Of a stretch of DNA of 64,000 bases, positions 6,531 through 43,123 are shown piece by piece (positions within the stretch are counted from its first letter, which is position 1; the number at the start of each line of letters is the position of its first letter). The notes beneath the pieces are model-generated. The model searched no databases and had not been told where the DNA came from. It was given only the letters and a program-made list of their open reading frames with translations. The position numbers and the translations under genes are program-made. The stretch is from Planococcus sp. MB-3u-03 (lineage in GTDB: Bacteria > Bacillota > Bacilli > Bacillales_A > Planococcaceae), in NCBI RefSeq assembly GCF_002833405.1, contig NZ_CP025135.1, positions 2,089,501 through 2,153,500 of the forward strand, given 5' to 3'.

Positions 6531-7693
6531 TTACTTTTTCGTTTTTTCGTATTTATTGAACATGGAAACATTCATTAATACTCCCATAGCTAACGATAAC
6601 AAAATTACCGAAGTTCCGCCATAGCTGATAAATGGAAGTGTCACCCCTGTCAGCGGGATGATGCCCGAAAGCCCACCCAGATTGACGAAAGACTGGATGC
6701 CGATCATGCTTGCGACACCTGCTGCAAGCATGCGCGCAAGTGGGTCGCTGGTGGTCATGGCGATCCACAACCCGCGCAGGACAACAAAGCCCAATCCGCC
6801 GATGACGACGAAGACGCCTAGAACGCCGAGCTCTTCAGCGATAACCGACATGATGAAATCGGTATGGGGCTCTGGCAAATAGCCGAGCTTCTGGATGGAC
6901 TGGCCAAGGCCGAGGCCACTAAGCCCCCCTGAGCCGATTGCCAAATAGCCGTTAACGATTTGGAAGCCGAACCCAAGCTCATCGGAAAATGGGTTGAAGA
7001 AGGCATCGATACGCCCTACCCGTTTTTCCGTGAAAATCAGGTCTTTGGCAAAAATCATTGCCGGGATAATGAATACCGCGGCAGCTGCAATGACGATGCC
7101 CGCCAATTTCACGAATGGCTTCAGGCGGACACCTGAAGCTGCCATCACTGACAAGCCGACTGCGCCGATGATGACCATCGAGCCCAAATCCGGCTCTAGG
7201 AAGACCAGCAGCAAAACAGCTGTCAAAATGATGACCGGCGGGATGATCGATTCGTTCAGTTTGTTGATGGACCCATTGCGGTATTTATTGGAAAACACGC
7301 CAGCTAAATAAAAGATCAAGCCGACTTTGGCGACTTCCGACGGCTGGATATTGGCGAAGCCGAGGCTGATCCAGCTTTTCGCGCCGCCTGCCGCAAATCC
7401 GATAAAGTGGACGAGGATAAGCCCGCAAAGATGACAGCGAGTACGGTCGCCATCATCCATTTTCTTGAAATGCTTATAGGGAACACGGCAGCGAGCAGGA
7501 ATACTGGATAAGCGATGGCCAAGTTGACTAATTGCTGTATGTAGAAACGGTCCGGGGAATCATTATAATAGTTCACGGACCAGGCCATGCTCGAGGAGTA
7601 AATCATGATCAGGCCAAAAATGGTCAGCGCCAGGTAGGCAAAGAGAAGCGGATAGTCTATGTACTTGCCGTATTTCTTGATGTAGGATTTCAT
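6531..7693 (-). pseudogene. ftsW: FtsW/RodA-family lipid II polymerase, split by a single-base frameshift
   Basis: SEDS-family septal peptidoglycan glycosyltransferase with about ten membrane helices. The N-terminal part (from ATG 7693, MKSYIKKYGKYIDYP) and C-terminal part are in different frames. The frame changes near 7421-7425, within GCGGGC on the coding strand; restoring one G or C rejoins AVIFAG to LILVHFIGFAAGG. The joined product is about 387 aa, close to B. subtilis FtsW. Family motifs are intact: GGAKSWISLG, QPSEVAK, FLEPDLG, PEPHTDFI, and the C-terminal GVTLPFISYGGTS. Position between pyc and ylaN matches B. subtilis ftsW, which is essential there, so an assembly error is likelier than a true pseudogene. 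Confidence 0.85.
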
Positions 7694-33353: not shown

Positions 33354-34543
33354 ATGGCCGTCAAATCAACTAAATTCGCCTTATATATACTCATGTTCAA
33401 TATGTTCATCGCCATGAGCGGAATCGGCCTCATCATCCCGATCATGCCCGCTTATCTAGAAACATTCGGCGTCGCAGGCCAAGCGCTCGGCACCTTGATC
33501 GCCACTTTCGCTTTTGCCCAATTTCTATTTTCGCCGATTTCCGGAGAACTCTCCGATAAATACGGGCGCAAAAACTTGATCATTTTCGGCCTGGTCGTAT
33601 TCGGTTTGTCGCAGCTGCTCTTCGGCATGGCAACCGAATTGTGGGTCCTCTATCTCGCACGCTTCTTCAGCGGCGTCGGCGGCGCATTCCTGATCCCGCC
33701 GATGATGGCATTTGTGGCCGATATCACAACTTACGAAGAACGGGGCAAAGGAATGGGGTTGCTCGGCGCTTCGATGTCTCTCGGTTTCATGATCGGGCCG
33801 GGCATCGGCGGCTTCCTCTCCGAAGTCAGCCTGCAATTCCCGTTTTATGTTGCGACCTCTGTCGCTTTGCTGTCCGCCTTGCTCTCCTTCTTCGCCTTGC
33901 CGAATGTCAAACCGGCCGTGCAGGCTGTGGACTATAAACGAGAGAATTTGTACCAGCAGATGAAACGCTCTGTCTACACCGTATTTTGTCATGCTGCTTG
34001 TCATGTTCATCTTTGCGTTCGGCCTGTCGAATTTCCAATCGACAATCGCTTTATATGTCGATAAGCAATTCAATTCACGCCGAAGGAAATCTCGGTTGTC
34101 ATCACTGTCGGCGGTTTTGTCGGCGTCATCGTCCAAACTTTCGTCATCGACAGTTTGTTCAAGCGTTTCGGCGAGATGCGCGTCATCCTCGTCAATCTGC
34201 TCATTTCAGCCGCTGCAATGATTGGCATTCTCTTCGTCAATACATTCTGGACGATCCTATTCGTGGCAGCTGTCTTTTCACTGCCGCCTCCCTCCTGCGC
34301 CCGGCAATCAACACACTCATTTCAAAACTCGCCGGCGACTCGCAAGGATATGCGGCTGGGATGAACAATGCTTACATGAGCCTCGGGAATATGATCGGGC
34401 CTGCACTTGCCGGGATTCTGTTCGACATCGACATGAGCTTCCCGTACATCACAGGAACCTTCATCCTGCTCGTCTGCTTCTTCATTGCCTTTAACTGGTC
34501 GACACGAAGAAAAGAACTGTTGCAGGAAAGCCGCAGCAGCTGA
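33354..34543 (+). pseudogene. MFS drug-efflux transporter broken by three indels
   Basis: Twelve-helix MFS (DHA1, Bmr/NorA-like) of about 395 aa. The N-half is intact (IIPIMPAYLETFG, motif A GELSDKYGRKNLI, motif C GFMIGPGIGGF). The frame then changes near 33972-33981, at 34074-34075 and at 34275-34278. The last two are repaired by adding one T to a TT and a TTTT run, giving QFNFTPKEISVV and FFTAASLLRPAINT. The rest (SLGNMIGPALAGILFDI) reads to 34543. GAAGG lies upstream of the ATG. Sequencing error is likelier than decay because residues stay conserved between the shifts. Confidence 0.8.
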
Positions 34544-34591: not shown

Positions 34592-34683
34592 TTTTTCAGA
34601 GTGTTGAAGAAGTCTATTAATCCATAACGAACTAGAATGGAGTCATTTTTCTACATTCAATTATCAATGATCTTTCTAAGTAT

Positions 34684-34807
34684 TTGGAGAAGCGTTCGCT
34701 CGACTCCTGTGGATTAGCGAGACGACCGAGACCCCGCAAGGCGCAAAGCGACTGAGGAGGCTTGGGCGCGAGCCCACGGAAAGCGAGCGATAAGCTTCGG
34801 AAAATAC
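34684..34807. repeat. Dispersed intergenic repeat-like block
   Basis: GC-rich block of about 120 bp in an AT-rich gap, with GAGAAGCGTTCGCTCGACTC, GACGACCGAGACCCCGCA and GAGCCCACGGAAAGCGAGCG. This composition recalls an abundant intergenic repeat I know from Bacillaceae/Planococcaceae genomes. CGCTCG and CGAGCG near its ends could pair, so it may fold. No convincing ORF. Only one copy is in the window, so repeat status is inferred. Confidence 0.55.
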
Positions 34808-34837
34808 GATTTCTTAGCTTTCTCGACAGCCTGAAAA

Positions 34838-34863
34838 GCGAGACGCCAATAGCGGCGTCTCGC
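34838..34863. terminator. Terminator of dapL
   Basis: Perfect stem GCGAGACGCC/GGCGTCTCGC, T5 on the plus strand and T4 on the minus strand, adjacent to the dapL stop codon. Confidence 0.8.
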
Positions 34864-34866
34864 TTT

Positions 34867-35975
34867 TTAACGTTGCTTGAAATACTCATAGAGAAACTTC
34901 GGCATGAACGACAGAAGCCGCTCATCCGGCGCCAGCTTGGCATGATGCAAGCCGTAATCGGAGCCGGCCCCTGCCCAAAACATCAAAGCCGGCAGCCGTT
35001 CGGTGAAATAACCGAAATCTTCACCCGTCATGGCGGCTTTGCTGCGGACAGCCTGTATGTCCGGAGCATCCTGTGCATAACGCAAAACGACTCAGCAAGC
35101 TGTTCGTCATTGTCCACTTGGCGATAGTTCGCTCCATAATCGATCGACACTTGGCATTCATAGCCTTCTTCGATCGACCGGCACAGCGATTCGACGCGTT
35201 TTTCACGCTTTCCATCGACTCAGGCGTCAAGGTGCGGATTGTCCCTTCCAGGCGTGCCCGCTCAGCGATAATGTTCTGCACAGTGCCGGCAGACATCTTC
35301 CCGACCGTCAAAACGGCCGAATCCATCGGGTCGACATTGCGGCTAACGACGGTCTGCAATTGCATCAATAAAGCCGCTGCTGCAACCGCCATATCGCGCG
35401 TCTGATGCGGGTAAGCGGCATGGCCGCCTTTGCCGTGCAGATCGATGAACAATTCCGATGTGTTGGCAAAGAGAAGACCAGGCTTCGTCGCTACAGTGCC
35501 GACCGGCAGTTCAGGTGCAATGTGCAAGGCGAAAAGTTCATCCGGCAAAGATCCGGACGCTCTTTTCGAGCCATTGAAGAAGCGGCTGTGCGCCGCCCGG
35601 CCCTCTTCGGCAGGTTGGAACAAGATCACTACATCGTTATCCAGCGGATGTTCAAGCAACTGTTCCAGCAAGCCGAGCGCGACTGCCATATGGATATCGT
35701 GCCCACATGCATGCATGAACCCTTCGTGACGAGAAGCGAACGGCAAGCCGGTTTCCTCAGGATCGGCAAACCGTCGATATCCGTGCGCCAGCCGATTGTT
35801 TTCGCGGGCGAACGGCCCTTAACTTTGACCACAAGGCCCGTGCGCCATTCAACCAGCTCGATGCGACCCGGAGCCATTTGGGAAATGATCTCTTTAAATA
35901 GCTTTGCGTTTTAAATTCCTGAAACCCGATTTCCGGAATTTCATGAAGCTCTCTCCTGATTTGAATAAGATCCAT
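34867..35975 (-). pseudogene. dapL: N-acetyldiaminopimelate deacetylase (M20 family), broken by four indels
   Basis: M20 amidohydrolase removing acetate from N-acetyl-LL-DAP in lysine synthesis, counterpart of B. subtilis YkuR. From ATG 35975 ([20 protein letters not shown]) the frame shifts at 35893-35895, 35760-35761, 35199-35203 and 35084-35087; each is repaired by adding one base to a homopolymer. The joined product is about 370 aa, near YkuR length, with [29 protein letters not shown] and MTGEDFGYF intact. dapH lies 11 bp upstream on the same strand, the expected pathway pair. Errors are likelier than loss because lysine/DAP is needed for the wall. Confidence 0.85.
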
Positions 35976-35986
35976 AAAAAGGCCTC

Positions 35987-36700
35987 TTACAGCTGGCGGA
36001 GTTCTTGCTTGATTTCCGTTTTCGAACGGGTTTTTTCGTCCATCAGTTTCAACACGCGTGCTGGCGTACCGCCGACGACTGCGTTTTCAGGCACATCTTC
36101 GATAACAACAGCTCCTGCAGCGACGACAGAGCCTTTGCCGATGCGGACGCCTTCCAATACCACTGCGTTCGCGCCGATCATGACATCGTCCTCCACGATT
36201 ACCGGTGTAGCAGATGCAGGCTCGATTACGCCTGCCAATACAGCGCCAGCGCCGATATGGCAGTTTTTCCCGACTGTCGCGCGGCCGCCCATAATGACGC
36301 CCATGTCGATCATCGTGCCATCGCCGATGACAGAACCGATGTTAATGACAGCGCCCATCATAATGATGCAATTGCTGCCGATTTCCACGTTCTCGCGGAT
36401 AAACGCGCCTGGTTCGATGCGCGAATTGATGTTCTTCAAGTCAAGCATCGGAATCGCCGAGTTTCTGCGATCGTTTTCCACTACGGAATCTTCGATGACT
36501 GAAGCGTGCTGTTCAAGTGCTTTTTCCACTTCAGCCCATTCGCCGAATACTGTTGCATGATTGCCTTCTCCGAATACTTTCGAGCCTTCGCCAAAATTAA
36601 GCGCAGCTACGCCTTCACCTTTGACGTATACTTTTACAGGCGTCGATTTCTTCGCATTCTGTATGTACGAAATAATTTGATTTGCATCCATTTGTTCCAT
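35987..36700 (-). CDS. dapH: Tetrahydrodipicolinate N-acetyltransferase
   Basis: 237 aa left-handed beta-helix acyltransferase, first step of the acetyl branch of DAP/lysine synthesis. [20 protein letters not shown] is the DapH N-terminus, followed by hexapeptide repeats ([40 protein letters not shown]). ATG 36700 is preceded by AGAGG. Co-directional with dapL. Confidence 0.95.
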
Positions 36701-36766
36701 TGATCAAAACCTCTTTCTCTCGTGTAATGGTGTTATTATATCTGATTCAGTATAATAATACATCCT

Positions 36767-37642
36767 TTAGCTTAACAGAGTGGCATGTTTTTTGACAATA
36801 TCGACAAATGCCTCGACCTGCCGAAGTTGGAAAGACGATTCATAGCCGATCAGCCACGTATCCCGGGTCAACTCAAGTTCCTGTTCGCTATTCGTCAGCG
36901 GCATCGTATGGACATCCTCTGCACCTGTCAAGGTAATGGACGGCAAGATTGCATAGCCGATGCCATTGACTGCCATCTGCTTGCAGGTCTCGATCTGGTC
37001 TACCGTGATTTGGCGTTTGGGGTTGGAGGCAAAATGCTTTTGCCACCATTGCTGAATTTCCTCATAATAGGTAGAATCGCTTTTGAATTGGATGAACGGC
37101 CGTTCGGTCTTCATCACCTCTTCCAGCGAACTGATTTCTTTATCAACCAAATACAAAGTGTCTTTGAATAAATGGATCTTCGGGCCTTTCCAATCGGTCT
37201 GTCCCCGGACGATGCCGATATGGGCTTCACCGTCGTACAAAGCACGGACAATTTCAGAGCTCCATCCGGTGATCAATTGCACTTTCGCTTCCGGATACAG
37301 GGTAATGAAATCTTTCAACACTTTCGGGAGCCAGTTCTGGCCGATGATCGATGCGCAGGCGATTTTCAAGGTGCCGTGCACTTTTTCGCTTAAGGTATGC
37401 AGCTGTTCGAAAATTTCCTCCCTGCGCATCACGGCTTCTTTTGCGTATTGAATGACCAATTCACCGGCTGGAGTCGGCGTCAGCCCTTTTTGGGAACGCA
37501 CGAACAATTGCTGGCCCCATTCTTTTTCAATGGATTGCAGCCGCTGGGACAAAGCAGGCTGCGACAAGAAAAGCCGCTCTGCCGCTTTTCGCATATTGCC
37601 TTCTTCAGCGAGTACTTTAATGATCATTTCTTCATTTGACAT
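36767..37642 (-). CDS. ccpC: LysR-type regulator CcpC
   Basis: 291 aa LysR protein: winged helix (about 1-60, NMRKAAERLFLSQPALSQRLQ) and a C-terminal effector domain. WLPKVLKDFITLYPEAKVQL, RPFIQFKSDSTYYEEIQQWW and IETCKQMAVNGIGYAILPS closely match B. subtilis CcpC (YkuM), which represses citB and citZ in response to citrate. AAAGGAG nine bases upstream of ATG 37642. Its start overlaps the stop of the upstream MFS gene. Confidence 0.9.
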   Translation of the reverse strand: MSNEEMIIKVLAEEGNMRKAAERLFLSQPALSQRLQSIEKEWGQQLFVRSQKGLTPTPAGELVIQYAKEAVMRREEIFEQLHTLSEKVHGTLKIACASIIGQNWLPKVLKDFITLYPEAKVQLITGWSSEIVRALYDGEAHIGIVRGQTDWKGPKIHLFKDTLYLVDKEISSLEEVMKTERPFIQFKSDSTYYEEIQQWWQKHFASNPKRQITVDQIETCKQMAVNGIGYAILPSITLTGAEDVHTMPLTNSEQELELTRDTWLIGYESSFQLRQVEAFVDIVKKHATLLS

Positions 37643-37741
37643 CGGGTTTCACTCCTTTCAAACCGCGCAGTCCGAAAATCAGCAGGAAACTGATCAAGGC
37701 GCAGAGAAATGCAATGCTGTAAACGTTGCGCAGCCCGAAAG
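37632..37741 (-). CDS. C-terminal fragment of the MFS transporter cut by the adapter
   Basis: Open frame ending GAT GTC AAA TGA, coding 35+ residues with a last membrane helix (SIAFLCALISFLLIFGLRG) and a basic tail. It has no start and reads into the adapter at 37742. Direction and character fit the missing C-terminus of the MFS gene beginning at 39084. Stop overlaps the ccpC ATG by 11 bp, as expected for an MFS-ccpC coupled pair. Confidence 0.75.
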
Positions 37742-37774
37742 CTGTCTCTTATACACACTCCGAGCCCACGAGAC
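37742..37774 (+). other. Nextera (Tn5) sequencing adapter embedded in the assembly
   Basis: CTGTCTCTTATACACA is the Tn5 mosaic end as used in Nextera libraries; it is followed by CTCCGAGCCCACGAGAC, the Nextera read-2/i7-side adapter. One T is missing relative to the standard 34-base sequence. The next seven bases, TAGGCAT, also match the start of an i7 index as I remember it (N706). It interrupts an MFS gene in which both flanks code in different frames. Artefact, not biology. Confidence 0.95.
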
Positions 37775-37776
37775 TA

Positions 37777-39084
37777 GGCATTCGAGTTGACGGATTCCAG
37801 TGATAAGCTATTGCCCGAATCATCCAGCCGGTTCAATAGCGAGCTGTTCAATATGCTGCCGAGAAGCGCCACGCCGATTGTGCTGCCAAGGTTGCGCATG
37901 AACATATTTGAAGCGGTTGCCGCTCCCCGCTTATCGTACGACACTGCCGATTGGATCGATACGATAAAGGCGGTACTGGTCAATCCCATGCCGACACCGA
38001 CGAAGAAACTCGACATCCCTGCCCACAGTGGCCCAAAGCCGGGTTGCATCGCAACAAACAATACGGTTCCGAGCAGCAGGAACGATCCACCAAGAAGCGA
38101 GGTGCGGAAATACCCGATGCTGATCAAGAGCCTTCCTGACAAGACGGAAGCAATCGGCCATCCGATTGACATGGTCGTCAACGTGAAGCCAGCGATGGCT
38201 GCTGGCTGTTCCATGACGCCAGTTACATAAGCCGGCAAATAGCTGGAAATGCCGATCAAAATAATCCCCGTCGCGAGCGAAACCAAATTCGCATAGAGAA
38301 TCGCACGGTTTTGCCAAATTTCAAACGGCATCATCGGATCGTCTGACGCGCGCTCTGCTTTGACAAACCAAAACATGAACAAAGCGCCGAAAATGGCAAG
38401 CAAATAAGAAGGAGCCGAGAGCCAGCCAAAAGACACGCCCCCTTCGATAAGCAGATACAAGACGCTGCTAAGTGCAATCGTCAAAAACAAGGCGCCCCTA
38501 TAATCGATTTTCGCCCGCTCCATGCGCACCGGTTCTTTCAAATAAATCAGGATGCCAAGCAGCGATAAAATCCCGAGCGGCAAGTTGACCCAGAAAACAT
38601 ATTGCCAGCCGATCGTCGCCACTAGAACACCGCCGATGGCAGGGCCGGCGATGGCCGAAATGCCCCATACGCTGGACAAATATCCTTGGATCCTCGCCCG
38701 TTCTTCAGGAGAATAAATATCCCCCACGATCGTCGAGGCGATTGGCATGATAGCCCCCGCTCCCGCCCCTTGGATAAAGCGGAAAGCGATCAACTGTTCC
38801 ATCGAATCCGCTAAACCGCATAACCAGGAACCAATTAAAAACAGCAGCATGCCGAAAGTGAAGATCGCTTTCCTGCCGACAAGATCCGCTAATTTGCCGT
38901 ATAACAACACCGTCACCGTACTCATCAGCAAATAAGCGGAAAACACCCAACTGTATTTCGAAAATCCACCGAGGTCTGCAGCAATGCTCGGCATCGCGGT
39001 CGAGACAATGGTCGCTTCGACCGCGGAAACGAACATCGCCAGCATGACTGCGATCAAGATGAGCGGGCGTTTTGTTTGTTCCAT
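37777..39084 (-). CDS. MFS multidrug transporter (DHA2-type), 3' end lost at the adapter
   Basis: 436 residues with about 13 membrane helices of a 14-TM DHA2-family drug:H+ antiporter, like B. subtilis YkuC. AVEATIVSTAMPSIAADLGG is the family start; motif A is GKLADLVGRKAIFTFG and motif C region GISAIAGPAIGGVL. ATG 39084 has GAAGGG seven bases upstream. The apparent stop (TAG at 37774-37776) is formed by adapter sequence. An unknown stretch, perhaps 100 bp or so, is missing before the C-terminal fragment at 37632-37741. Confidence 0.85.
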
Positions 39085-39116
39085 ATCGATCCCTTCTTTC
39101 AACCAGCAGAAAAAAA

Positions 39117-39135
39117 GGCCTCAATGGATGAGACC
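39117..39135 (-). terminator. Terminator of darB
   Basis: GGTCTCA/TGAGGCC stem with one G-U pair, followed on the minus strand by T7. Confidence 0.8.
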
Positions 39136-39148
39136 TTTTTCAGGGTAA

Positions 39149-39592
39149 TTATCGTTTGAACTGGTAAAGTTGTTTTTTCAATTGCTTCAAGACGATCCGT
39201 CTTGTCAAAATCCCCATGAACATTCCATCGTCATCTACTACACAAAGGAAATTCTGGTCGATCACCAAATCCAAAGCTCTTTGGAAGCGGTCATTCAAAT
39301 GGATCAGCGGCAGGTCGGTCTGCATAATTTCCTCGACTCGAATATCGCCTAGTTTCTCGTACTCTATATGGTCCATTCCAAGAATGGCGTCTGTGATGCG
39401 CTGGGCATTAATCAAGCCGTGAAACCGGTACTTCGCATCCAAAACCGGGATGGCTGAATAGCCGGTCTTCGTCAAAACCAATAAAGCATGTTCGGCGCTA
39501 TTGCCGATTTGGACATGTGCTACTTTTTCGGACGAGATGACAAATTCTTCGATCGGGGTTTCAAGAAAATCTTTGCTCGGTAATGAAATCAT
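39149..39592 (-). CDS. darB: c-di-AMP-binding CBS protein DarB (CbpB, YkuL)
   Basis: 147 aa made of two CBS domains (about 18-75 and 85-147). KVAHVQIGNSAEHALLVLTK, TGYSAIPVLDAKYRFHGLI and FMGILTRRIVLKQL closely match B. subtilis DarB. There, apo-DarB stimulates Rel (ppGpp synthesis) and pyruvate carboxylase, and c-di-AMP reverses this. pyc is in this window. An ATG start with GGAG upstream. Sits between the MFS gene and fadH. Confidence 0.88.
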   Translation of the reverse strand: MISLPSKDFLETPIEEFVISSEKVAHVQIGNSAEHALLVLTKTGYSAIPVLDAKYRFHGLINAQRITDAILGMDHIEYEKLGDIRVEEIMQTDLPLIHLNDRFQRALDLVIDQNFLCVVDDDGMFMGILTRRIVLKQLKKQLYQFKR

Positions 39593-39692
39593 GTGCTCTA
39601 CTCCTTTTGCATCGCATGGTCTGATGCCGAAACACTTCGATTACATCATAACATAACACGTTTCCCGAAACTATTTAATTGGGGATTTTGGC

Positions 39693-40460
39693 TTAAAAAG
39701 GGAATTTATTCAACCATTGTCCACCGTCTAAGGTCACGATTTCCCCATTCATATAAGCCGCTTTCTCTGACATGATGAACGCTGCCAGATCTGCCACTTC
39801 TTCCGGTTTTCCAAGCCGGCCTAAAGGAACAGATTTCAAGGTCCGCTGCATCGCTTCTTGAGACTCAAAAAGTTTATCTGCGCCCCCAGTGCGTTCGATC
39901 GGGCCAGGAGCGATCCCGTTGACACGAATGCCATATTGCGTTCCCCATTCCACTGCTAGCGTCCGGGTCAGCGACATGACCCCGGCTTTAGCGGCGGCGG
40001 AATGAGCGACACCGGCTCCGGCATTCCAGGCATACGTTGCCAGCATATTAAGTATATTCCCTTTTGTGCCATTTTCAATCCAATAATTGCCCACGGCATG
40101 AGAACAAAAGAAAGTCCCGTTCAAGACGATATCAATAACAGAGCGCCATCCATTCGGCGATAATTTTTCAGCATGGACGATGAAATTCCCTGCTGCATTA
40201 TTGACAAGGCCATCGATCCGGCCGAATTTCTCATGTGCGAAATTGACCATCGCCTTGGCGTGTTCAGGTTCACGCACGTCCATCTGGAACGCTTCCGCCT
40301 GTCCCCGCAGCCCGGACAATTTCGTCAATGACTCATTCAACTTTTCCATATCCCGCCCTGTAATGATGACGTTCGCCCCTTCAGCGGCAAACTTTTCTGC
40401 CATATGAAAGCCCATCCCACTGGAGCCTCCGGTCACGATTATTGTTTGTTCACTCAACAT
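39693..40460 (-). CDS. fadH: 2,4-dienoyl-CoA reductase (SDR family)
   Basis: 255 aa short-chain dehydrogenase, used in beta-oxidation of unsaturated fatty acids. Gly-rich VTGGSSGMGFHMAEKFA, NNAAGNF, GTFFCSHAVGNYW, and the C-terminal GIAPGPIERTGGADKLFES motif is that of FadH/YkuF. The frame is open to 40622, but ATG 40460 has AAGGGG upstream and the family start MLSEQTIIVTGG. Confidence 0.9.
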   Translation of the reverse strand: MLSEQTIIVTGGSSGMGFHMAEKFAAEGANVIITGRDMEKLNESLTKLSGLRGQAEAFQMDVREPEHAKAMVNFAHEKFGRIDGLVNNAAGNFIVHAEKLSPNGWRSVIDIVLNGTFFCSHAVGNYWIENGTKGNILNMLATYAWNAGAGVAHSAAAKAGVMSLTRTLAVEWGTQYGIRVNGIAPGPIERTGGADKLFESQEAMQRTLKSVPLGRLGKPEEVADLAAFIMSEKAAYMNGEIVTLDGGQWLNKFPF

Positions 40461-40588
40461 CTCAACATCCCCTTTTTTTGGATCATTTCCTGCAGCTCGG
40501 CACTGGATTCGGTTTATGTACAGTGACTGAAAATTTTGATATGATGAACAAAGACTGATCAATCCATTATTGCGAAAGGAATGAGCCC

Positions 40589-41050
40589 ATGTCCTTGACG
40601 ACGAAAGATTCGGAAATCGCACAAGCTATTTTCACTGTCAACCGCCACGCTAAGACTGCTCCTGACAATCAATTTCTGTATGCATTAAAAAAGCAAGCAT
40701 TGAATCTGATGATTCAACAAAAACGGGCGCAAAAACTGGGCCTGCACTTCAGTAAAAACCCCCGAAAAAGCCAACAACAATCATCTGTCCTCGTGAAATG
40801 CGGCAATTATTATTTCCACATGCTCCCCAAAAAGGAAGATTTCCATTCGCTTGAGCATTTTGGAGACTTGGATGAATCCTATCGCAATCCACCGAGCCGC
40901 ATGAACTTGAAACATGCCAAAGAATTGCTTCAAAATTACACCGGGCTGGAGGCGCCGGATAAAAAGCCTGCCATCCCGGCTTTTTCCAAACGCTACGAAC
41001 CGAAAGAAATGAATCGTTTCTATTCACCGAAAAAATCCTATTTTGATTGA
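40589..41050 (+). CDS. ykyB: YkyB family protein
   Basis: 153 aa soluble basic protein. IAQAIFTVNRHAKTAPDNQF, GLHFSKNPRKSQQQSSVLV and YYFHMLPKKEDF match B. subtilis YkyB, a conserved protein of unknown function in the same neighbourhood as fadH. AAAGGAATG precedes the ATG. Confidence 0.88.
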   Translation: MSLTTKDSEIAQAIFTVNRHAKTAPDNQFLYALKKQALNLMIQQKRAQKLGLHFSKNPRKSQQQSSVLVKCGNYYFHMLPKKEDFHSLEHFGDLDESYRNPPSRMNLKHAKELLQNYTGLEAPDKKPAIPAFSKRYEPKEMNRFYSPKKSYFD

Positions 41051-41054
41051 TCCG

Positions 41055-41078
41055 GCCGGCGGTCCTGCACTGCCGGTT
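41055..41078 (+). terminator. Terminator of ykyB
   Basis: CCGGC...GCCGG hairpin followed by T7 just after the ykyB stop; position approximate by a few bases. Confidence 0.65.
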
Positions 41079-41087
41079 TTTTTCTGC

Positions 41088-41954
41088 TTATTTTTCCGCA
41101 AAATCGAAATGACGGATCAATGCTTGGGTGCCCAGGTCCCCATCCCCTGCACGTTCCAATTCCTCATAAATCCCGAGCGATAATTTCAGCCCTGGAAGGT
41201 CCAGGCCCCATCGCTCGGATTCTTCCACCGCTATTTTCATATCCTTGATGAAATGCTTGATGTAAAATCCTGGACGGAAATCGCCTTCGATCATTTTCGG
41301 GGCTAAATTCGACAATGACCAAGAGCCGGCTGCGCCAGCCGAGATGGAGCGCAATACGTTTTCTGGATCGAGTCCTGCTTTTTTCGCGTATATAAGGGAT
41401 TCACAGACGCCCAGCATATTATTCGCGATATTGATCTGGTTGCACATCTTTGTATGCTGACCGGAACCCGCTGGACCTTGCAAAATGATATTGCCCGCAA
41501 ACAAGCGAAACAGCGGAAGCAAGCGATTGAAAACCTTCTTCGCCGCCGACCATGACAGACAGAACACCATTTTGGCGCCGATATCCCCTCCAGAGACTGG
41601 CGCATCCAGCGCATGCAAGCCTTTTGCCCGTGCAGCGTCCGCAATTTCCTGCGCAAGCTTAGGCTGGGAAGTAGTCAAATCGATGAGCACCGTTCCTTCG
41701 GCGGCATTTGCCAGCAATCCGTTTTCCCCGAAATAGATTTCCTGCACGTCGGATGGGTAACCGACCATCGTAAAGATCACTTCCGCATCTGCCGCCAGTT
41801 CCTTCGGATTGTTTTTCCAGGACGCACCTTGTTCAAGCAAATCCTCAGCTTTCTTGGCCGTTCTCGTAAATACGGAAAGTTCATGGCCGCCCTCCAGCAA
41901 ATGGCGTCCGATGCTATTACCCATGACCCCGGTACCGATAAATCCAATTTTCAT
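41088..41954 (-). CDS. Beta-hydroxyacid dehydrogenase (YkwC-like)
   Basis: 288 aa member of the 3-hydroxyisobutyrate/6-phosphogluconate dehydrogenase family. Rossmann KIGFIGTGVMGNSIGRHL, substrate loop LDAPVSGGDIGAK, catalytic Lys region GSGQHTKMCNQINIA. Same length as B. subtilis YkwC. Likely reduces or oxidises a small beta-hydroxyacid with NAD(P); substrate unknown. AAAGGAGG before ATG 41954. Confidence 0.9.
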   Translation of the reverse strand: MKIGFIGTGVMGNSIGRHLLEGGHELSVFTRTAKKAEDLLEQGASWKNNPKELAADAEVIFTMVGYPSDVQEIYFGENGLLANAAEGTVLIDLTTSQPKLAQEIADAARAKGLHALDAPVSGGDIGAKMVFCLSWSAAKKVFNRLLPLFRLFAGNIILQGPAGSGQHTKMCNQINIANNMLGVCESLIYAKKAGLDPENVLRSISAGAAGSWSLSNLAPKMIEGDFRPGFYIKHFIKDMKIAVEESERWGLDLPGLKLSLGIYEELERAGDGDLGTQALIRHFDFAEK

Positions 41955-42030
41955 TTTATTGCCTCCTTTATATTTCCATAATAGCAAAAATGGTCAGTCT
42001 ATTCACTCTTCTTTTTTGGCATAAAAAAAA

Positions 42031-42053
42031 GGCCGGTCCATATAGGGCCGACC
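42031..42053 (-). terminator. Terminator of the 62-aa gene
   Basis: GGCCGGTCC/GGGCCGACC stem with one mismatch and one G-U pair, followed on the minus strand by T8. Confidence 0.7.
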
Positions 42054-42182
42054 ACAAAAGGGGGAAATGAGAATGTTGCTGTGTTCAAGTATACTATGCC
42101 CCCTCCAAACATAGGATAAACCTTTTTCTCAAAAAAAAATTTCATTGCGTGATTTTCCGGCACCGCCCATCATGCTGTGATT

Positions 42183-42371
42183 TTATTTGGACGGTTCTAC
42201 CGTATATTCATATTGCGTCTTGCCGTGATGGAAAGCCGTCCCCCTGAAATGTTTAAAATCTTCCCGTTCAGTCAATATCTCGCGGAACTCAAGAAATTCG
42301 TCTTTTGGAATATCCAGCGTGTCGATCTCGCCATTTTTCAATCGCTCCAGTTCGTTAGCATAATCAGTCAT
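42183..42371 (-). CDS. Small acidic protein of unknown function
   Basis: 62 aa, soluble, acidic; segments LKNGEIDTLDIPKDEFLEF and FKHFRGTAFHHGKTQYEY. No family recognised with confidence. An excellent AAAGGAG site eight bases before the ATG and a terminator downstream support a real gene. Confidence 0.7.
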   Translation of the reverse strand: MTDYANELERLKNGEIDTLDIPKDEFLEFREILTEREDFKHFRGTAFHHGKTQYEYTVEPSK

Positions 42372-42508
42372 GAAATGTTCTCCTTTCCTTTCGTTTTGTT
42401 AAAATCCTTCTGTTATAATACTATACGGACGAAACCATACCCGTCCAGCCACATTGCGCATTGCCCCTCATCCGGGCAGCCTTTGTTGATTTTAGGAGGA
42501 TTTTTTTT

Positions 42509-43123
42509 ATGCTTACTCTATTAAAGCGCCATACGCTTATCTGGTTATTGCCGCTTTCTCTTTATTTGTACCATTTGGCTTTCGAAAACACCGCTATCTT
42601 CTGGTATATGTACACATTTTCCATTTTGGTGCTGATGTCGATCGCGCTCGTCAATTACTCTGTATTCGACGAATTGAAAACCTGGAAATCATTAGTATAC
42701 GGCGTGTTGTTCGGCAGCCTTATCTACGCCGTCCTGGCACTCGGCTACCTATTCTTCGATCTCCTACCACTTAATGTGGAAGGCCCGGTCTCTGCCATTC
42801 AAACCTTATTTGCGCCAACCAGCATCTGGCATTACCTATTATTGATGTTTGTCATCGTTCCAGGCGAGGAGCTTTTCTGGCGCGGTTATATCCAGCAGCA
42901 GTTGAAAAAATACATGAAGCTGCCGTTTGCCATTCTGGGCGCTTCTCTCTTATTCGGCATCGCGCTTGCCTTCAGCGGCTTTTGGCCAGGCATTGTAGCC
43001 GGTATTGTAGCAGGAGCATTGCTAGGCATTCTGTATGAATGGAAGCGCAGCATGCCGCTGTTGATCATCACTCATTTGATTGTCCTGGTGCTCTTGTTCA
43101 TCGTCATGCCGCTGCCGGTTTAA
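42509..43123 (+). CDS. CPBP-family intramembrane metalloprotease
   Basis: 204 aa with about six membrane helices. The CPBP (Abi) motif EELFWRGYIQQQL supplies the two Glu and the Arg; a His in IITHLIVLVL would be the other ligand. The middle motif (FSGFWPGIVAGI) lacks the usual His, so activity is uncertain. Members process membrane substrates or act in bacteriocin immunity; role here unknown. ATG 42509 preceded by AGGAGG. Confidence 0.85.
   Translation: MLTLLKRHTLIWLLPLSLYLYHLAFENTAIFWYMYTFSILVLMSIALVNYSVFDELKTWKSLVYGVLFGSLIYAVLALGYLFFDLLPLNVEGPVSAIQTLFAPTSIWHYLLLMFVIVPGEELFWRGYIQQQLKKYMKLPFAILGASLLFGIALAFSGFWPGIVAGIVAGALLGILYEWKRSMPLLIITHLIVLVLLFIVMPLPV

What the first reader, a model, noticed from the sequence alone, without database searches (positions are those of the whole stretch)
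37742..37774. Nextera/Tn5 sequencing adapter embedded in a chromosomal gene
The 33-base segment is the Nextera mosaic end plus the i7-side adapter with one T missing, and is followed by seven bases matching the start of an index. It cuts a DHA2 MFS gene into 37777-39084 and 37632-37741, in different frames. The contig is therefore a false join here, with an unknown stretch of the gene missing.
Basis: partly seen in the sequence, partly recalled or inferred. Interest (0 to 1): 0.85.

Follow-up and report, generated by a model that had tools for sequence, protein, structure and literature searches.

The report
Sequencing adapter left in a chromosome
A short piece of laboratory sequencing adapter was left inside this bacterial genome assembly, where it stands in place of a small piece of a transporter gene; it is a data error, not biology.

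Summary
Window 37742-37774 is the Nextera Read-2 (i7-side) adapter, exact but for one missing T, followed by seven of the eight bases of index TAGGCATG. It is an artefact. The six nearest same-genus genomes found carry the transporter gene intact, with 66 native bases where the window has 40 (33 adapter, 7 index). So native sequence is replaced, not merely interrupted, and the gene is frameshifted.

Two parts of the reading change. The flanks are colinear with relatives, so this is not a misjoin of distant loci. The missing stretch is about 66 bases (22 codons), not unknown.

It is also not alone. The same 3.38-Mb contig has two further, error-ridden adapters: one with the best-fitting same index in a DeoR-family regulator gene, one Read-1-side in a spo0A-like gene. 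At each, six of six relatives have native DNA. The window also has about three times as many private 1-2-base indels as two relatives, clustered, although it has the fewest private substitutions. I infer a long-read backbone with poorly corrected patches, into which single untrimmed short-read tails were written. Raw reads were not available, so that last step is inference.

The parts
37742..37774 (+). Nextera Read-2 adapter read outward from the insert: mosaic end plus i7-side adapter, 33 of 34 bases (one T absent)
37775..37781 (+). First seven bases of i7 index TAGGCATG
   Evidence: 7 of 8 fit, next best index 3 of 8; the octamer stands in that place in 11 of 91 public adapter matches
37777..39084 (-). 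N-terminal piece of a DHA2-type MFS transporter gene (the last codons before the stop are index and adapter sequence)
   Evidence: relatives intact
37632..37741 (-). C-terminal piece of the same gene, in another frame
   Evidence: read; left flank aligns to 6 of 6 relatives up to 37741
35088..35898 (-). Cluster of private small deletions in an amidohydrolase gene beside dapH; further clusters at 7425-7481 (ftsW-like gene), 33975-34274 and 41534-41569

Best explanation
Assembly artefact. In a Nextera (Tn5 tagmentation) library with i7 index TAGGCATG, some inserts were shorter than the read, so reads ran through the native end at 37741 into adapter and index. The reads were not trimmed. Short-read depth here was so low that one such tail was taken as sequence. 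The tail stands where about 66 native bases should be, and native sequence resumes at 37782. The result is a transporter gene that lacks 22 codons and is frameshifted in the file only. Shown: adapter, index, replacement, colinear flanks, two further adapter sites, excess of clustered small deletions. Inferred: a long-read backbone, a short-read depth near one, and that a polishing, gap-filling or bridging step wrote the tail in.
For: Adapter plus index, E = 1.5e-12 in the whole assembly. Six of six closest genomes have 66 native bases there. Two further adapter sites in the same contig, E = 4.0e-7 and 3.5e-4, each with native DNA in 6 of 6 relatives; the one with an index place fits the same index best (6 of 8). 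Length changes are small (-26, -6, +9), as if a backbone set the spacing. Site 2 has 9 errors in 49 bases, eight of them A or G read as T, which suggests a single poor read tail; the erroneous bases do not lean towards the native ones (3-4 of 9, against 17-18 of 40 at the correct adapter bases). The window has 28 private 1-2-base indels against 8 and 9 in two relatives though it has the fewest private substitutions (1953 against 2322 and 2099). Shortened homopolymers stand beside site 2 and near L002.
Against: No reads, platform or assembler record were seen, so the step that wrote the tail in is not shown. The nearest indel clusters lie about 1.8 kb or more from 37742, and no non-triplet indel shared by at least half of the relatives was reported next to site 1 outside the adapter, or at site 3, so only site 2 has the two error types side by side. 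Site 3 is the weakest match (E = 3.5e-4, 26 bases).
Confidence: 0.93

Rival explanations
1. False join in the strict sense: two contig ends, one with an adapter tail, were joined by an assembler or scaffolder without evidence for spacing, with an arbitrary loss of sequence.
Against: Flanks are colinear and the length changes are only -26, -6 and +9 at three sites; arbitrary joins would lose varied lengths.
Confidence: 0.2
2. A real insertion in the strain: natural Tn5/IS50 or a laboratory construct left the sequence in the chromosome.
For: The mosaic end is that of Tn5 (recalled).
Against: Only one mosaic end in the window; native bases are replaced rather than interrupted; artificial adapter and index follow the mosaic end; two more copies in the assembly carry read-like errors.
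Confidence: 0.01
3. Chance resemblance.
For: Weak partial matches do occur: ten 2-3-mismatch hits to the 19-base mosaic end lie in 7 of 22 other genomes, and one 14-base match in this genome (L002) proved native in 6 of 6 relatives.
Against: At 37742 the match is 33 bases plus 7 of index; about 3e-12 exact 33-mers with any one base left out are expected in this genome, and relatives differ exactly there.
Confidence: 0.001

Closest known systems
Nextera adapter read-through contamination at contig ends in public assemblies
   Same: Same adapter, same orientation (mosaic end next to native DNA, index outward), same index set.
   Different: 117 of 120 public stretches have it within 60 bases of a contig end; here it lies inside a 3.38-Mb contig, lacks a T (0 of 129 public matches do, with a pattern that allowed it) and native DNA follows.
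Adapter inside deposited plasmid and phage records
   Same: The 34-base adapter is found in 9 of 72,556 plasmid and 41 of 50,697 phage records, some listed hits well inside the record.
   Different: Those were found only because at least 28 bases are exact; I did not compare their flanks with relatives, so whether native DNA is replaced there is unknown.
Natural Tn5/IS50 end
   Same: Shares the mosaic-end bases (recalled).
   Different: No second end in the window, no inserted element, artificial adapter and index follow.

Membership tests
Nextera Read-2 (i7-side) adapter read-through | Mosaic end followed directly by the artificial i7-side adapter | tested here: met
   33 of 34 bases, one T absent
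Nextera Read-2 (i7-side) adapter read-through | An i7 index of the kit follows | tested here: met
   7 of 8 bases of TAGGCATG
Nextera Read-2 (i7-side) adapter read-through | P7 flow-cell sequence after the index, if the read is long enough | tested here: inconclusive
   Absent at 37782, where native DNA resumes; at site 2 the match extends to query base 49, that is seven bases into P7
Nextera Read-2 (i7-side) adapter read-through | The library was made with Nextera chemistry and reads clip at the site | not testable with these tools
   no reads or library record
Misjoin of distant loci | Flanks come from different places in relatives | tested here: not met
   Flanks adjacent in 6 of 6 relatives; alignments cross the site in G018 and G010
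Tn5/IS50 insertion | Two inverted ends around an element, native target otherwise kept | tested here: not met
   One mosaic end in the window; 66 native bases replaced

The most novel reading that the evidence does not exclude
Adapters that survive into long, apparently finished bacterial contigs are mostly degraded ones: single low-quality read tails with deletions and substitutions, which stand in place of native DNA, break genes, and slip under exact or near-exact adapter screens. Here 3 of 3 sites found in one assembly are imperfect, and each lies in a gene that is whole in the relative examined. If general, some species-specific pseudogenes in public genomes would be this artefact.
Probability: 0.4. 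Interest if true: 0.35.

Novelty: not a real feature. Interest (0 to 1): 0.12.

Why it matters
It matters for the data, not for biology. An annotation of this genome would be likely to call the transporter, a DeoR-family regulator and a spo0A-like gene broken, and probably an ftsW-like and an amidohydrolase gene too. The adapters and the indel clusters say that these should not be read as gene loss without checking. If degraded adapters inside long contigs prove common, error-tolerant screens would be worth running on public genomes.

Tried and rejected
L002 (C13:1130547-1130562, 14 exact mosaic-end bases) looked like a fourth adapter. Rejected: the stretch is native in 6 of 6 relatives, with small differences.

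A search for the missing 66 bases elsewhere in the assembly, with a relative's 351 bases as query: apart from the site itself, only 27 short pieces with E of 1.1 or more.

By recall the genes look like Planococcus; no call names it. Paper searches on that guess (listings) and passages of PMC8933910 and PMC6399143 gave two short-read Planococcus drafts, of 34 contigs and 3,488,448 bp and of 43 contigs and 3,220,000 bp; neither has this assembly's size or contig number. A search on adapter contamination and one on adaptor screens were seen as listings only and gave nothing that I use.

Mixture of adapter and native reads as the cause of the site-2 errors: not supported. The assembly's base equals the native base at 3-4 of the 9 adapter mismatches in each of six relatives, and at 17-18 of the 40 adapter matches.

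A longer branch of this species as the cause of its private indels: not supported, it has the fewest private substitutions of the three genomes.

Not run: the search for homologous proteins, the search for related loci, structure prediction, viral-contig scans; they would hardly bear on an adapter.

Full report
WHAT IS THERE. Window 37742-37774 is the Nextera Read-2 adapter in the orientation seen when a read runs out of a short insert: mosaic end, adapter, index. It equals the 34-base adapter with base 17, a T, left out (adapter string recalled, not taken from a call). The last 17 bases are exact, and the mosaic-end pattern with up to 3 mismatches is met by 0 of 100 shuffles of the window. 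The next seven bases are TAGGCAT. Among 12 i7 indices that I recalled, this place fits TAGGCATG at 7 of 8 bases and no other at more than 3. The octamer is also seen without memory: of 129 adapter matches in 120 public stretches, 91 are followed by eight bases and then ATC, and in 11 of the 91 those eight are TAGGCATG.

WHAT IT REPLACES. The gene is a DHA2-type MFS transporter (MFS_1 9.6e-52; best NCBIfam model TIGR00711 at 3.2e-63, below its curated cut-off, for the N-terminal piece). Next on the same strand come a ccpC gene and a dapH-type gene. A search of 40 genomes, the own one included, found relatives of the protein in 40 of 40; the six closest others match at 95-97% and have open frames of 503-504 residues. 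In these six the native flanks reach the same points, 37741 and 37782, and 66 bases lie between them where the window has 40 (gaps of 66, 68 or 70 with the right-hand match starting at 37782, 37784 or 37786, which comes to 66 in each; a stricter anchor test gives 66 in 5 of 6 and finds no anchors in one). So 22 codons are replaced and the frame is lost. The missing stretch has no second copy in the assembly: beyond the site itself a relative's 351 bases gave 27 short pieces with E of 1.1 or more. The flanks are colinear: one alignment to G018 covers 34834-43123 and one to G010 covers 34836-64000.

NOT ALONE. The assembly has 3,614,431 bases in 13 contigs; the window lies in C13, of 3,378,540 bases. 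A search with adapter + index + P7 gives four matches, two of them significant: the window's (E = 1.5e-12) and C13:1737702-1737750 on the plus strand (E = 4.0e-7). The second has 9 mismatches in 49, eight of them A or G read as T, and its index place is closest to the same index (6 of 8, next 3 of 8). A search with the Read-1-side adapter gives five matches, of which C13:1595587-1595612 on the minus strand is significant (E = 3.5e-4). At both places 6 of 6 relatives have other, native DNA. The length changes are -6 (alignment with all six; 65 against 59 in the 3 of 6 with strict anchors) and +9 (31 against 40 in 6 of 6). Site 2 lies in a DeoR-family regulator gene, whole in G018 (250 residues), and site 3 in a response-regulator gene with a Spo0A C-terminal domain, whole in G010 (260 residues); the pieces left in this assembly match only parts of the family models. 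That site 3 lies inside the G010 frame is worked out from the match coordinates. A further look-alike, L002, is native.

CONTROLS. The 19-base mosaic end with up to 3 mismatches occurs 13 times in 23 genomes, 3 of them in this one; the other ten are in 7 of 22 genomes, one with two mismatches and nine with three. Partial likeness to the mosaic end alone is therefore weak evidence; what counts is the adapter beyond it and the difference from relatives. One of the ten, in G012, is a 16-base mosaic-end stub about 20 bases from a contig start, the usual kind of place.

THE STATE OF THE ASSEMBLY. In a three-way comparison over about 62.8 kb, the window has 28 private indels of 1-2 bases, 24 of them deletions, against 8 (6 deletions) in G018 and 9 (4 deletions) in G010. 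Inside frames of at least 150 residues the counts are 17, 3 and 5. This is not a matter of a longer branch: private substitutions are 1953, 2322 and 2099. Of the 17, 15 lie in four clusters at 7425-7481, 33975-34274, 35088-35898 and 41534-41569. The first breaks an ftsW-like gene, the third an amidohydrolase gene beside dapH. FtsW is essential in most bacteria (recalled), so the breaks are more likely in the file than in the cell; whether the genome has a second, intact copy was not tested. Shortened homopolymers beside site 2 and near L002 are of the kind that long-read assemblies show (recalled). Against a tight link: around sites 1 and 3 one search reports no non-triplet indel outside the adapter that at least half of the relatives share.

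HOW IT MOST LIKELY AROSE. Shown: adapters at three places, native DNA replaced at each, small length changes, colinear flanks, an excess of small deletions. Inferred: a long-read backbone; local short-read depth near one, since a deep consensus would hardly keep 9 errors in 49 bases, and those errors do not lean towards the native base; and a polishing, gap-filling or bridging step that wrote the untrimmed tail in. The missing T is not explained in detail: 0 of 129 public matches lack it, although the pattern allowed for it. It splits the adapter into exact runs of 16 and 17 bases, which would hide it from a screen that needs long exact words; the searches, which need 28, would have missed it.

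HOW COMMON. In other collections: 0 of 20,395 E. coli records, 9 of 72,556 plasmid records, 41 of 50,697 phage records. An adapter in the middle of a megabase contig is thus, in this sample, the less usual form of a well-known artefact.

VERDICT. Observation confirmed; artefact reading supported; 'false join' and 'unknown stretch' corrected. Ordinary in kind, useful as a warning about this assembly.

Noticed in passing
G000:C13:1737702-1737750 (L004) and G000:C13:1595587-1595612 (L003): Two further, error-ridden Nextera adapters in the same contig, in a DeoR-family regulator gene and a spo0A-like gene.
   Followed up: yes
window 7425-7481, 33975-34274, 35088-35898, 41534-41569: Clusters of private small indels relative to two relatives; the first breaks an ftsW-like gene, the third an amidohydrolase gene.
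   Followed up: partly
window 34597-34833: About 237 bases with no alignment in G018 or G010 at this place, lying between two near-identical hairpins that look like terminators; perhaps a small interspersed repeat.
   Followed up: partly
G012:C5:17-35 (L178): A relative's contig starts with a 16-base mosaic-end stub followed by about 19 other bases: probably the same artefact at a contig end.
   Followed up: partly
Plasmid and phage records listed: 9 of 72,556 plasmid and 41 of 50,697 phage records hold the Nextera adapter; some listed hits lie well inside the record and under annotated genes.
   Followed up: no
G000:C13 near 1130500 (L002): Several shortened homopolymers relative to six relatives within about 130 bases, without an adapter.
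   Followed up: no
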